DNA of 64,000 bases from Rhizobium rhizogenes NBRC 13257 (GTDB lineage Bacteria > Pseudomonadota > Alphaproteobacteria > Rhizobiales > Rhizobiaceae), in NCBI RefSeq assembly GCF_000696095.1, contig NZ_BAYX01000001.1, positions 620,001 to 684,000 of the forward strand, given 5' to 3'. The notes under the pieces were generated by a model. It saw nothing but the letters and a program-made list of their open reading frames with translations. It was not told where the DNA came from and ran no database searches. The translations under genes and the position numbers were made by a program. Each line of letters opens with the position of its first letter. The stretch's first letter is position 1. This document shows positions 33,475 to 46,846 of this stretch, one piece after another.

Positions 33475-33848
33475 TAAACAGGCGATCTTTCCATGCTGTT
33501 GGCAAAAAGATGCCTCGCTCAGCTTGTCGCAGCGAGCGAGGCAAGGCGGGCGCATCACCAACAGGCAAGGGAGGAAACACCTGTGGTTTCAGGACGCGCC
33601 AGGAGAACACCTGGATATGTGCATTCAAGAATAGAACTCTGACAGGTCTATGCGAAAAGCTTTTTCTTTTTCTCATTTCGATCCGCCAGAATCGGATCAG
33701 CGCTGTGACTACTAGGAAGAACCTGTTTTAGATTCTCGTAAAGTTCAAAGAGCAAAACCGGTGAACGATTCACAGCTAATAGTGACAGTTTTCACACAGG
33801 TGGCTGTGATTAAAGCGTGATTTTGGTGGAAAACCGCCTCGGCGGCTC
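33475..33848. other. 374-base gap with a 10-bp hairpin but no gene
   Basis: The only clear structure is TGCCTCGCTC / GAGCGAGGCA at 33511-33543 with a 13-base loop and no T tract, 37 bases after the ferredoxin stop; it may protect the mRNA end. A shorter inverted repeat TCACA/TGTGA lies near 33792-33810. No coding frame has convincing codon use. Confidence 0.5.
33830..33847 (-). terminator. Possible terminator of the DUF922 gene
   Basis: On the minus strand CCGCC/GGCGG with a very short loop is followed by TTTT. It abuts the stop codon. Weak. Confidence 0.3.
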
Positions 33849-42604: not shown

Positions 42605-42894
42605 GTCGAGATACTCCGTAATTAACCCCGATGTCGCGGCCTTGCCGTGGTATACGACTGGCCGCGCGCCTTCCTCTTTGTCCTGATATGAGGCAATCAT
42701 ATGGACAGGTCCACCTTCGAGGCAAGATAAGATCGTTCGCTGTTCAGCGCTCTTCCTTGTGAATACAAGCCTTTCTGCCTCCGCAAAGCTTTTTGCTGAG
42801 GCGGCAAATTGCTAAAGATGATTCGGAAAGGTCCGATTCCGGCGATCCGTCAAGTGCACGACGCGACAAGGAGGAGGACGGAGACGAGGGGTCC

Positions 42895-45510
42895 ATGACG
42901 AAGCAGCGTCCGTCCGACGAGTATAGCGTACCGCTGGTGGACCGCGGGGTTCGTTCGGGCACTGTGCTGCGCATCATTCTGCTGGCGCTGGTGCTGGTGG
43001 CCGCTGCGGCGGCTTTCGTGGTCTTCAAGGACGAGCTCGACAATGAGGCCGTGCTTGGCGGGCTCGGTATTCTTGCCATGGTCGGCATTTTCTTTCTCGT
43101 GTCGTCCATCATCGGCTTCGTCGAGGTGATGCCGCAGACCCAGTCCGACAGCCTGGCGCGCTCCTTCCTGAACAGCCATCCGGACGGCACGCTGATCACG
43201 GACGAAAAGGGCCGCATCGTCTACGCCAATGCCGCCTACGGTCGATTGACAGGTGCTGCCAAGGCCACCGAAGTGCAATCGCTGGAAACGCTGCTGTCGC
43301 GCAATCGCGAATCCAACGAGGCGCTCTATCGCCTGGCCAATAGCCTGCGTGACGGCAAGGAAGGATCCGAGGAGTTCCGGCTGCTGAAGCCGCTCGGTCT
43401 TGCGGAAGGCAATGGCAACGGCGCGCATTGGTATCGCCTGAAGGCGCGCGTTCTGCCGCCGGAGCAGGGACGCGGCAAGGCGCTGCATATCTGGCAGATC
43501 ACCGACATTACCTCGGAACGCGATGATCAGGAGCGCTTCTTCAAAGAGCTGCAGAACGCTATCGATTATCTCGATCATGCGCCGGCGGGTTTCTTCTCGG
43601 CCGGGCGCAAGGGCGAGATATTCTATTTGAACGCGACGCTTGCCGAATGGCTGGGCTTCGATCTCACCAAATTCACGCCGGGCTCGATGAGCGTCGGCGA
43701 TCTCGTCGCGGGCGAGGGCCTGACGCTGATCCAGTCCGTGCAGGCCGAGCCGGGCTTGAAGAAGACGGTGACGCTCGATCTCGATCTGCGCCGCGCCAAC
43801 GGCCAGAGTCTGCCGGTGCAGATCGTCCACAGCGTTACCTCGATGCGCGACGGTGCGCCGGGCGAAAGCCGGACCATCGTTCTGACGCGCCAGAATGGCG
43901 GCGACAACGACCAGTCGGCTTCTGTCGCGGCGATGCGTTTCAGCCGCTTCTTCAACAATACGCCGATGGCGATCGCCTCGGTCGACGGTTCTGGGCGTAT
44001 CCTGCGTACGAATGCGCCGTTCCTGAAGCTCTTCTCCGATCTCGTGTCGCGCGACGATATCGAGCGCGGTGCTGCGCTTGAAACGATCGTCAACGAAAGC
44101 GACCGGCCCCGGCTCGAAGATGCGCTGGCCGCCGCCAAGGACCGGCAGGGCGATATCCCGCCGATCGATTCCCGCAATCCGAAGGACGACACGCGGCATT
44201 TCCGCTTCTATATCAACGCCGTCATCGATCAGACCGATGAGGCGCCGGAAGAGGCAGCCATCGTCTATGCCGTCGAAGTGACCGAGCAGAAGGCTCTGGA
44301 AACGCAGATGGCGCAAACGCAGAAGATGAATGCGGTCGGCACGCTTGCCGGCGGCATCGCGCATGATTTCAACAACGTGTTGACCGCGATCCTGCTGTCG
44401 TCCGACCATCTGCTGCTGCAGGCCCGTCCGGCCGATGCCAGCTTCGCCGATCTGATGGAAATCAAGCGCAATGCCAATCGCGCCGCCGTCCTGGTGCGGC
44501 AGTTGCTCGCCTTCTCGCGCAAGCAGACGATGCGGCCGACGATCCTCAACCTGACCGACGTGATCGGCGATCTGCGCATGCTGGTGGAGCGGTTGCTATC
44601 GGGCACGCATGTCAAGCTCGATGTCGACTATGGCCGCGATCTCTGGCCTGTGAAGACCGATCTGTCGCAGTTCGAACAGGTGCTGATTAATCTTTGCGTC
44701 AACGCCCGCGACGCTATGCCGGGTGGCGGCACGCTGACACTGCGCACCCGCAATCTGCCGGTCATGGATGTCGCTGCTTTCAATTATGCCTATCTGCCGC
44801 ATGAGGAGATGGTGCTGGTCGAGGTCAACGACACCGGCACCGGTATTGCCCCCGAAATCATGGACAAGATCTTCGAGCCTTTCTTCACGACGAAGGAAGT
44901 GGGCAAGGGCACAGGTCTCGGCCTTGCCATGGTCTATGGCATCATCAAGCAGTCCGGCGGCTATATCCATCCGGAATCGGAAGTCGGCAAAGGCACGACA
45001 TTCCGTATCTTCCTGCCGCGCCACATCGTCGAAATGCCGGCCCTGACGGAAGGCCAGTCGCCCGAGAGCCGCGATATCTCGGCGATGGACCAGAGCGTCG
45101 CTGCCGTCGTCCCGCCAGAAGAACCGGCGGATCTCACCGGCAAGTCGGCTGTCGTACTCCTCGTCGAGGACGAAGAGGCGGTCCGTCGTGGCGGCAAGCG
45201 CATGCTCGAGACACGCGGCTACACGGTCTACGAGGCCGGCTCCGGCGTCGAGGCGCTCGAGATCATGGAAGAACTTGACGGCCAGGTGGATGTCGTCGTG
45301 TCCGACGTCGTCATGCCGGAAATGGATGGGCCGACGCTGCTTGGAGAGCTGCGCAAGAAATACCCGGATATGAAGTTCATCTTTGTCTCCGGCTATGCGG
45401 AGGACGCCTTCGCCCGCAACCTGCCCGCCGACGCCAAATTCGGCTTCCTGCCGAAGCCGTTCTCGCTGAAGCAGCTTGCGGTGGTTGTCCGAGAGACGCT
45501 GGATCACTAA
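42895..45510 (+). CDS. cckA: Hybrid sensor histidine kinase CckA
   Basis: About 871 residues, the cell-cycle kinase that phosphorylates CtrA through ChpT. Two transmembrane helices (about 22-45 and 55-78), PAS domains (about 95-215, 235-350, 370-460), HisKA with predicted His490 in [11 protein letters not shown], HATPase ([31 protein letters not shown]) and a C-terminal receiver with predicted Asp804 in [12 protein letters not shown]. The ATG at 42895 has GAGGGG upstream; the open frame begins at 42793. The gene stands alone, divergent from the FliO-like gene. Confidence 0.92.
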
Positions 45511-45664
45511 TAAAGAGGTTGCCGTAAAATTCTGTTTTTGCAGGATTTCTCTTCTTGGAGATAAGAGCATGCAGGCGGTCGGCGTCCTGATGATGACGCG
45601 GGAATCTCGTCATATCTCGATATTCCCATTGCCAATTTTATCCGATCCATGGCATCTAGCGGGC
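45511..45664 (+). other. cckA-trpS spacer, leader-proximal part
   Basis: No gene. There is no clear terminator for cckA. A weak promoter candidate for the leader lies at 45629-45658. The rest of the 316-base gap is the attenuator and a short stretch before the trpS start. Confidence 0.4.
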
Positions 45665-45715
45665 ATGAACGACCTCGCAAATTCCAATCTGCGGATGTGG
45701 TGGCGCTCCTTGTAG
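45665..45715 (+). CDS. Trp-rich leader peptide of the trpS attenuator
   Basis: MNDLANSNLRMWWRSL, 16 residues, with two adjacent Trp codons at 45698-45703 placed where a stalled ribosome would cover the first hairpin arm. It recalls rhizobial trpE leader peptides, which carry tandem Trp near the end and can be leaderless. A possible promoter TTGCCA (45629) to CATCTA (45653) would start transcription near the AUG itself; this is weak. Confidence 0.7.
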   Translation: MNDLANSNLRMWWRSL

Positions 45716-45781
45716 GAGCGGCAGTCGTCATTTCTTGAAATCGACCCTTGCCGCCGTGATCCGGCAGGTATGGTCGTTTTT
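45702..45781 (+). promoter_or_regulatory. Transcription attenuator upstream of trpS
   Basis: Three alternative stems can be drawn. 1:2 CGCTCC (45704-45709) with GGAGCG (45715-45720). 2:3 antiterminator 45718-45754: GCGGCA with TGCCGC, then GTCG/CGAC and ATTTC/GAAAT, about 14 bp. 3:4 terminator: CGACC-CTTGCCG (45742-45753) with CGGCAGG-TAT-GGTCG (45762-45776), then TTTTT (45777-45781). The antiterminator uses the 5' arm of the terminator, so only one can form. Ribosome stalling at the Trp codons would free arm 2 and allow read-through into trpS. Confidence 0.75.
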
Positions 45782-45826
45782 CCAAGTTTCTCCCCGATCG
45801 CGGCGGCTCCTTTACGGAGCATCAAA

Positions 45827-46846
45827 ATGTCCCCACCAATTGACAGTCGTCCCGTCATCCTGACTGGTGATCGACCCACCGGCCCACTGCATCTCGGCCA
45901 CTATGCTGGTTCTCTGCGAAACCGCGTGGCCCTTCAACACAGCCATCGGCAATACCTGCTTCTCGCAGACACGCAGGCCCTAACCGATAATGCCGATGAT
46001 CCGGACAGGGTTCGTCGCAACGTCCTGGAAGTCGCCTTTGATTATCTCGCCGTGGGAATCGATCCGGCCGAGACCACGATTTGCTTGCAGTCTGCCTTGC
46101 CGGCGCTCGCCGAGTTGACGCTTCTCTATCTGAATTTCGTGACTGTCGGGCGGCTTGAACGCAATCCGACAATCAAGACGGAAATCCAGCTTCGTGGCTT
46201 CGAGCGTGATATCCCGGCAGGATTCCTTTGCTATCCGGTCTCCCAGGCGGCCGACATTACAGCCTTCAAGGCGACGATCGTTCCCGTCGGCGAAGATCAG
46301 GCGCCGTTGATCGAGCAGACCAATGAGATCGTGCGTCGCCTCAACCGACAGGTCGGACGTGAGATTCTTTTCGAAGCCGAGGCGATGATCCCGGCGGTGG
46401 GTCGTCTACCGGGTGTCGATGGCAAGGCGAAGATGAGCAAATCGCAGGGTAACGCTATCCCGCTTTCTGCCTCACCGGACGATATTCGCGAGGCGGTGTT
46501 GCGGATGTACACTGATCCGGATCATCTGCGCGCAGCCGATCCGGGCAAGGTCGAAGGCAACGTCGTCTTCACCTATCTCGATGCGTTCGCCGAGGATCGC
46601 GATTTGGTCGAGGGGTTGAAGGCGCGCTATCGAAAGGGCGGTCTTGGTGACATGACGGTGAAGCGGCATCTTGAGGATGTGCTGCAAGCGCTGCTTGCTC
46701 CGATCCGCGAGAGGCGTGCCCGTTATGCCGGCGATCCGGCTTATGTCCTGGATTTGCTACGGCAGGGAACGCTGAAGGCAAGGGAGCGGACCGAGGCGAC
46801 GGTCGCTGAACTGCGCGCCGCTCTCGGTCTGTTCATATTGACCTGA
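45827..46846 (+). CDS. trpS: Tryptophanyl-tRNA synthetase, probable second isoform
   Basis: A 339-residue class I synthetase charging tRNA-Trp. The HIGH-like motif is in [17 protein letters not shown] and KMSKS is exact in [13 protein letters not shown]. Its sequence style ([29 protein letters not shown]) resembles auxiliary TrpRS forms rather than the usual rhizobial housekeeping enzyme, which in relatives lies elsewhere; that is inferred. The ATG at 45827 was chosen; the frame opens at 45770 inside the terminator. The preceding Trp attenuator suggests control by charged tRNA-Trp. Confidence 0.9.

What the first reader, a model, noticed from the sequence alone, without database searches (positions are those of the whole stretch)
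45665..45781. Complete ribosome-mediated attenuator in front of a tryptophanyl-tRNA synthetase gene
Seen in sequence: a 16-codon leader peptide ending MWWRSL; stem 1:2 overlapping the Trp codons; a long antiterminator 2:3 (45718-45754); and a terminator 3:4 (45742-45776) followed by TTTTT, sharing one arm with the antiterminator. All four segments of a classic trp-type attenuator are present. Known attenuators of this kind in rhizobia control trpE or trpE(G). I know of no described one on trpS, where it would sense charged tRNA-Trp and adjust its own charging enzyme. A weak promoter at 45629-45658 would make the leader start at its AUG, as in Sinorhizobium trpL; the released leader RNA might then act in trans, but that is speculation.
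Basis: partly seen in the sequence, partly recalled or inferred. Interest (0 to 1): 0.85.

Follow-up and report, generated by a model that had tools for sequence, protein, structure and literature searches.

The report
Trp-codon attenuator of spare tryptophanyl-tRNA synthetase
In front of a second tryptophanyl-tRNA synthetase gene of a rhizobium lies a stretch, conserved far beyond rhizobia, with a mini-gene holding two tryptophan codons and predicted switching hairpins, which likely turns the enzyme gene on when charged tryptophan tRNA runs short; a conserved extra pairing arm sets it apart from the textbook design.

Summary
The gene is a second TrpRS; a divergent one sits elsewhere in the genome. 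All 15 of 60 same-genus genomes that carry this gene have the leader; 16 divergent TrpRS loci (15 from other families) do not. Trp-Trp stands in 56 of 61 aligned trpS leaders. The same RNA precedes other genes with other codons: Tyr-Trp before an isochorismatase-like gene (8 of 8), Trp-Trp before trpG, and in two weak hits Tyr-Tyr before tyrS. Not first: trpS attenuators are in print for Streptomyces, and a leader ORF on trpS mRNA for Caulobacter.

New here is a fifth segment (45796-45807), just upstream of the trpS ribosome site, that pairs with segment 3. It has the most pairs changed on both sides of the helices tested (7 of 12) and passes alignment-free tests (0 of 5000). The U-tract is missing in many relatives. 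I favour Trp-tRNA-dependent transcription attenuation with a second output through 3:5; that step is inferred, and a folding test of ribosome-site release failed. Verdict: real, a new variant of a known kind.

The parts
45629..45657 (+). predicted promoter of the leader: -35-like TTGCCA at 45629-45634, -10-like region about 45651-45656; would start the RNA at or near the leader AUG
   Evidence: TT at -36/-35 and AT at -11/-10 from the leader ATG are the commonest letters in 60-100% of 27 Rhizobium-type and 25 other leaders with the same spacing; strict sigma-70 scan negative
45665..45715 (+). leader peptide ORF MNDLANSNLRMWWRSL*
   Evidence: sequence; position and frame conserved; substitutions by codon position 60/84/123 against the window in the 27 Rhizobium-type leaders
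45698..45703 (+). regulatory codons UGG UGG
   Evidence: Trp-Trp in 56 of 61 aligned trpS leaders; Tyr-Trp in 8 of 8 leaders before an isochorismatase-like gene
45704..45709 (+). segment 1
   Evidence: pairs with 45715-45720; 97.8% of cells paired, 3 of 6 pairs with changes on both sides; alignment-free 0 of 2000 and 0 of 5000 permutations
45715..45727 (+). segment 2 (5' arm of antiterminator; overlaps the last base of the stop codon)
   Evidence: pairs with segment 1 and with 45742-45754 (92.2% of cells paired, no covariation beyond shuffles)
45742..45761 (+). segment 3, shared by antiterminator 2:3, terminator 3:4 and the new 3:5 helix
45762..45776 (+). segment 4 (3' arm of terminator hairpin)
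   Evidence: 80.4% of cells paired, 6 of 11 pairs with changes on both sides; alignment-free 60 of 2000, and 3477, 23 and 22 of 5000 in three sets
45777..45781 (+). U-tract TTTTT of the terminator
   Evidence: sequence; a T-run of 4 or more anywhere between segments 3 and 5 in 35 of 91 leaders only
45796..45807 (+). segment 5, pairs with segment 3 (45750-45761), just upstream of the trpS ribosome site
   Evidence: 12 pairs, 91.1% of cells paired, 7 pairs and 32 cells with changes on both sides, 0 of 500 shuffles on every measure; inner part returned unprompted by RNAalifold; alignment-free 0 of 5000 with 18 representatives, and 0, 1 and 0 of 5000 with 9, 17 and 23 representatives chosen without the RNA model
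45806..45820 (+). small hairpin over the trpS Shine-Dalgarno (45806-45810 with 45816-45820)
   Evidence: 84.9% of cells paired, covariation score reached by 22 of 500 shuffles; alignment-free 205 of 2000, and 551, 167 and 21 of 5000; shuffling test without signal
45827..46846 (+). second tryptophanyl-tRNA synthetase gene (339 aa)
   Evidence: TIGR00233 above cut-off; nearest solved structures 1yi8 and 2a4m, the latter named tryptophanyl-tRNA synthetase II; divergent TrpRS elsewhere in the genome

Best explanation
This is a conserved leader with a Trp-Trp mini-gene in front of a second tryptophanyl-tRNA synthetase gene, and it likely works as a ribosome-mediated attenuator that switches the gene on when charged tRNA-Trp is scarce. 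Inferred steps: the RNA starts at or near the leader AUG; when Trp-tRNA is plentiful the leader ribosome runs to the stop codon, covers segment 2, and segment 3 pairs with 4, so transcription stops after the T5. When Trp-tRNA is scarce, or the other TrpRS is inhibited, the ribosome waits on UGG UGG, covers segment 1, 2 pairs with 3 and transcription runs on. In the read-through RNA segment 3 then meets a third partner, segment 5. Covariation shows that the 3:5 helix is kept by selection; I infer that it locks the read-through fold, keeps 3 away from 4 and shapes the trpS ribosome site. In relatives that lack a U-tract this 3:5 switch, or Rho, would have to be the main output.
For: Trp-Trp leader at 56 of 61 aligned loci. 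Model R1 matches 15 of 15 same-genus loci of this gene and, at E<=0.01, 0 of 16 divergent TrpRS loci. Codons follow the gene: WW at 30 of 32 TrpRS-linked model hits (window included, some the same loci as in A1), Tyr-Trp at 8 of 8 isochorismatase-like, WW at the one trpG hit; Tyr-Tyr at the two weak tyrS hits, read by eye. Stems 1:2 and 3:4 covary; 3:5 covaries most. All parts of the classic design are in the window.
Against: No expression data. 2:3 is conserved but shows no covariation beyond shuffles. At equilibrium the transcript up to the T5 folds to 3:4, not 2:3, even with a stalled ribosome, and without a ribosome to a third fold in which the leader start pairs with segment 4; antitermination would have to be kinetic. 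Strict terminator and promoter scans are negative. U-tract absent in many relatives. Predicted opening of the ribosome site, stalled against finished: 21 up, 21 down, 19 equal of 61, so folding gives the translation layer no support. 18 of 81 loci have no alignable leader. One of the 15 same-genus genes (L087) has an in-frame TAG.
Confidence: 0.8

Rival explanations
1. The main output is translational: the leader ribosome decides between 2:3 and 3:5, and 3:5 with the small hairpin over the Shine-Dalgarno controls initiation on trpS, termination being secondary or local to some species.
For: 3:5 covaries more than 3:4; segment 5 ends 8 nt before the Shine-Dalgarno; 46 of 64 leaders outside the Rhizobium-type group have no T-run of 4 or more between segments 3 and 5; in the larger set chosen without the RNA model the anti-SD:SD pairing is better than 4979 of 5000 permutations.
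Against: Predicted Shine-Dalgarno opening does not differ between states; anti-SD:SD is weak in other tests (22 of 500, 205 of 2000, 551 of 5000 in the smallest set, none); pairing of segment 2 with the anti-SD or of 1 with the SD shows nothing.
Confidence: 0.3
2. Rho, not an intrinsic hairpin, terminates the untranslated leader when the ribosome leaves it, and 3:5 or 2:3 hides or exposes the Rho loading region.
For: U-tract not conserved in many relatives; Rho is proposed for other leader ORFs without terminators (PMC1262725, passages).
Against: The window has a T5 behind 3:4 and some relatives have, by eye, a strong hairpin with a long T-run (L124, L170). No Rho site was sought.
Confidence: 0.15
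3. Only the released leader RNA or peptide matters, acting in trans as described for Sinorhizobium rnTrpL/peTrpL.
For: Predicted leaderless start and short terminated RNA resemble rnTrpL (PMC7298713, passages).
Against: Regulatory codons follow the linked gene, which points to cis action; no match of model R1 to the genome's own trpE leader.
Confidence: 0.05
4. A chance short ORF over an ordinary 5' UTR.
For: Single-sequence fold is only modestly unusual.
Against: Conservation, covariation and codon-gene match.
Confidence: 0.02

Closest known systems
Streptomyces auxiliary TrpRS attenuator: Vecchione and Sello 2010 (title seen only; species recalled); predicted 2005, PMC1262725 (abstract and passages); S. 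lividans trpL2 in PMC8079986 (passages)
   Same: TrpRS gene, in the 2010 title an auxiliary one, with a Trp-codon leader ORF and alternative hairpins
   Different: the S. lividans leader MMTRTCTQLWRAA has one Trp and, by that paper, no uridine-rich stretch; no fifth segment is mentioned in the passages I saw; I did not align the Streptomyces RNA
Rhizobial trpL/trpE(G) attenuator, rnTrpL (PMC7298713, passages)
   Same: Trp codons, transcript start at the AUG (predicted here), terminator, same host group
   Different: different gene, WW not WWW; the genome's own trpE leader MNTSLNNIAVWWWAR has a plain hairpin with T-run and no match to model R1
Caulobacter crescentus trpS leader CDS (PMC4117421, passages)
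   Same: alphaproteobacterial leader ORF on trpS mRNA found by ribosome profiling
   Different: sequence, codons and RNA structure not given in the passages seen; not compared here
Other aaRS attenuators: leuS in Streptomyces, pheST in Gammaproteobacteria (PMC1262725, passages)
   Same: leader-peptide control of an aminoacyl-tRNA synthetase
   Different: other amino acids and genes

Membership tests
trp-type ribosome-mediated transcription attenuator | short leader ORF with codons for the sensed amino acid near its end | tested here: met
trp-type ribosome-mediated transcription attenuator | pause hairpin 1:2 next to the regulatory codons | tested here: met
   97.8% of cells paired, covariation
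trp-type ribosome-mediated transcription attenuator | antiterminator 2:3 exclusive with terminator 3:4 | tested here: inconclusive
   exclusive by sequence; 2:3 paired in 92.2% of cells but no covariation beyond shuffles
trp-type ribosome-mediated transcription attenuator | intrinsic terminator with U-tract | tested here: inconclusive
   present in the window, strict scan negative, T-run in 35 of 91 leaders
trp-type ribosome-mediated transcription attenuator | expression follows charged tRNA through stalling | not testable with these tools
   needs expression data
Streptomyces-type auxiliary TrpRS attenuator | gene is a second, divergent TrpRS | tested here: met
Streptomyces-type auxiliary TrpRS attenuator | enzyme resists indolmycin and is expressed when needed against it | not testable with these tools
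   stated for TrpRS1 in PMC9437257 (passages); needs bench work here
rhizobial trpL/rnTrpL family | sequence homology to the trpE(G) leader | tested here: not met
   model R1 does not match the genome's own trpE leader; the best match in that locus (E 0.35) lies elsewhere
translational attenuator | stalling frees the Shine-Dalgarno | tested here: inconclusive
   no difference in predicted opening, 21 up and 21 down of 61
any Rfam 15 family | match to a curated covariance model | tested here: not met
   no match in this region at gathering score, none at E<=1 in 45560-45860

The most novel reading that the evidence does not exclude
An unnamed RNA family of Proteobacteria: a five-segment attenuator in which segment 3 chooses between three partners (2, 4 and 5), so that one stalled leader ribosome sets both transcription read-through and the ribosome site of the next gene; the module is re-tuned by its codons (Trp-Trp, Tyr-Trp, perhaps Tyr-Tyr) and set before spare tRNA synthetases, a trpG operon and an isochorismatase-like hydrolase.
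Probability: 0.4. Interest if true: 0.72.

Novelty: new variant of a known kind. Interest (0 to 1): 0.55.

Why it matters
It gives a widespread, testable feedback circuit in which a cell would sense failing tRNA-Trp charging and make a spare enzyme, as expected for a guard against TrpRS inhibitors. The conserved 3:5 helix says that the textbook four-segment picture misses an arm that selection has kept over large distances, also where no U-tract is seen. The codon swaps with the downstream gene are a natural experiment on what the leader senses.

Tried and rejected
Rejected or unsupported: (a) a translation switch by segment 2 pairing with the anti-SD, or 1 with the SD: no covariation beyond shuffles. 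(b) State-dependent opening of the Shine-Dalgarno: no difference (the first run, ended in a script error). (c) Selection for a closed ribosome site, tested by shuffling the upstream sequence: no signal, observed opening 0.302 against 0.284 shuffled in 59 rows. (d) Folding of nine other leaders, six of them gammaproteobacterial-type with 3:5-like arms, under ribosome masks: no clear switch of the Shine-Dalgarno. (e) A known Rfam element: no match. (f) Origin of the leader from the genome's own trpL: no match of model R1.

Rows dropped before counts: L066 (insertion), L075 (different build) and 18 loci without an alignable leader were left out of alignment A1 (61 of 81 kept). The model R1 was built from 44 of those 61. 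The permutation tests used 18 representatives of 91 sequences, 10 of them found by R1, whose structure already holds 3:5, so that set leans towards 3:5; one search repeats the test with sequences chosen by protein match only (60 pooled; 9, 17 and 23 representatives), leaving out L040, L050 and L082. In that repeat the 'segment 3 against middle' control was reached by 3246, 212 and 2018 of 5000. L114, L115 and L132 were left out of the gene check (43 of 46 model loci looked at).

Full report
What is there. The window carries cckA (42793-45510), then the leader and a tryptophanyl-tRNA synthetase gene (45827-46846), then a gene on the other strand that I call psuG by eye. The leader ORF 45665-45715 reads MNDLANSNLRMWWRSL.

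The gene is a second TrpRS. The genome has another at G000:C46, about 35% identical. Of 60 genomes of the genus examined (own included), 15 carry a close relative of the window gene, and each of the 15 also has the divergent one; one of the 15 (L087, also L007) has an in-frame TAG. The closest solved structures are 1yi8 and 2a4m, the latter named tryptophanyl-tRNA synthetase II (403 bits, against 227 for the next). 'Spare' or 'auxiliary' is inference from this.

Context. Of 40 genomes of the genus searched with the psuG protein, the best 30 places were fetched; 10 of 30 hold trpS next to psuG. Of the 20 that do not, 13 have cckA and psuG 42-280 nt apart, measured between ends of alignments, and 7 are 702-1287 nt apart; what lies between was not looked at. 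Of 39 trpS loci tested for the neighbours (L004-L042), 24 have both and 15 have neither in the DNA held, L016 being a short contig. So leader and gene look like one cassette that comes and goes; this is inference.

Conservation of the leader. From the best 80 of 534 confirmed relatives in genome contigs plus the window, 61 align over the leader: Trp-Trp in 56, Trp-Cys in 2, and one each of Tyr-Trp, Leu-Trp and a broken one. Two more (L066, L075) have a Trp-Trp leader of other build, and 18 (17 titled Cupriavidus, 1 Ralstonia; most behind a gene that I read as scpA) have none that aligns; L070 among these keeps traces. Where Trp-Trp and an ATG could be placed, the ATG lies 33 nt before the first TGG in 52 of 57 leaders, an SD-like tetramer precedes it in 2 of 57, and -35-like and -10-like letters keep their distance to the ATG in 27 Rhizobium-type and 25 other leaders. 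These are alpha- and betaproteobacterial; the class names are from record titles and memory. This supports an RNA that starts at or near AUG, as reported for Sinorhizobium rnTrpL (PMC7298713, passages), but no transcript was seen here.

Structure. On the 61-row alignment, 1:2 has 97.8% of cells paired and 3 of 6 pairs with changes on both sides; 2:3 has 92.2% and no excess over shuffles; 3:4 has 80.4% and 6 of 11 (two of its five measures are reached by 56 and 139 of 500 shuffles). RNAalifold, given no hint, returns only 1:2 and the inner eight pairs of 3:5. Because shuffles ignore kinship, I also paired each segment with its own or a stranger's partner, without an alignment. With 18 divergent representatives: 1:2 0 of 2000, 3:5 0 of 2000 (tighter windows 0 of 5000, 18 of 18 better than their row), 3:4 60, 2:3 889, anti-SD:SD 205, 2:anti-SD 1647, 1:SD 623 of 2000; two control stretches gave 912 and 2984 of 5000. 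Ten of these 18 had been found by the RNA model, so I repeated it with sequences chosen by protein only, in sets of 9, 17 and 23: 1:2 0, 0, 0; 3:5 0, 1, 0; 3:4 3477, 23, 22; 2:3 1219, 966, 1247; anti-SD:SD 551, 167, 21; control 3246, 212, 2018 of 5000. So 1:2 and 3:5 are firm, 3:4 good except in the smallest set, the hairpin over the Shine-Dalgarno suggestive, and 2:3 without support from covariation.

A family. A covariance model of 44 leaders (R1) found only the window in its own genome apart from matches with E above 4, and hits in 18 of 398 genomes of the phylum (E<=0.01), 29 of 397 of the order and 6 of 385 of the class (E<=0.001; the sets overlap). Of 43 hit loci checked (window included), 29 are followed by a TrpRS. 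Eight others precede a gene that in the one case tested matches Pfam Isochorismatase (the other seven judged by eye), and all eight leaders have Tyr-Trp. One precedes genes that I read by eye as trpG, trpD and trpC, with Trp-Trp. Two weak hits (E 3.5e-4 and 7e-4) precede tyrS (one tested) with a Tyr-Tyr leader read by eye. One (L125) precedes a GNAT-like gene by eye, and two (L130, L166) look like chance. All 15 loci of this gene in the genus match R1; of 16 divergent TrpRS loci (one from the own genome, 15 from other families of the order) none does at E<=0.01. Of 12 plasmid-collection loci read (of 90 records with a match), six have Trp-Trp leaders by eye or script (Vibrio, E. coli, Aeromonas, Proteus, Deinococcus, Agrobacterium rubi) and six have none (Acinetobacter, a Streptomyces-labelled record, Staphylococcus, one R. 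leguminosarum plasmid, Bacteroides, Lactobacillus). In Vibrio and Proteus 3:5 can be written with other letters (by eye); in the E. coli plasmid I see no segment 5.

Output. In the window 3:4 is followed by T5, but a strict scan does not call it a terminator. A T-run of 4 or more lies between segments 3 and 5 in 17 of 27 Rhizobium-type and 18 of 64 other leaders; shuffling gives 11.7 of 91, so it is enriched but far from universal (the run need not follow the stem directly). At equilibrium, with the ribosome stalled or at the stop, the short transcript folds to 3:4, and the full-length one to 3:5 in every state tried. Predicted opening of the Shine-Dalgarno is the same in stalled and finished states (21 up, 21 down, 19 equal of 61). 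So I commit to transcription attenuation as the first output, with 3:5 as a conserved further step whose role is inferred.

Prior work. trpS attenuators are in print: predicted in Streptomyces (PMC1262725, abstract and passages), studied by Vecchione and Sello 2010 (title only, in a reference list; paper not held), listed in S. lividans (PMC8079986, passages). A leader ORF on trpS mRNA is reported for Caulobacter (PMC4117421, passages). My searches listed no paper on a trpS attenuator in rhizobia; none of them asked for a fifth segment by name, and most subscription papers are not in that library.

Noticed in passing
L153-L155, L159-L163 (relatives of the same order): the same attenuator RNA with Tyr-Trp codons stands before an isochorismatase-like hydrolase, a gene not known to me as attenuated
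   Followed up: partly
L165, L167, L175: Tyr-Tyr leader MIKNAPIAANYYATLP with a GC hairpin and T-run before tyrS (weak model hits)
   Followed up: partly
L127-L129, L131, L133 (Vibrio and similar): Trp-Trp leaders where 3:5 can be written with quite different letters, and the Shine-Dalgarno lies in a long hairpin that overlaps segment 5; no U-tract directly after 3:4 (by eye and folding)
   Followed up: partly
L126 (same phylum, other class): 3:5 is a perfect 13-bp match (GCCGCCAGCCATG with CATGGCTGGCGGC), together with a hairpin and a short T-run
   Followed up: no
L134 (E. coli plasmid pB379_2): trpS of this type about 1 kb from an IS26 transposase gene, with leader MNRNVVISHLRRWWLPA and a plain GCCGCC/GGCGGC hairpin; no segment 5 seen
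   Followed up: no
L043, L049, L052 and other Cupriavidus loci; L047, L060: this type of trpS sits behind a gene read as scpA without a leader, perhaps as the housekeeping copy; L047 and L060 keep the leader
   Followed up: no
L087 and L007: one close relative of the window trpS has a single in-frame TAG while its leader is intact
   Followed up: no
window 33507-33608 minus strand: Rfam match to Rhizobiales sRNA Atu_C7 (66.3 bits)
   Followed up: no
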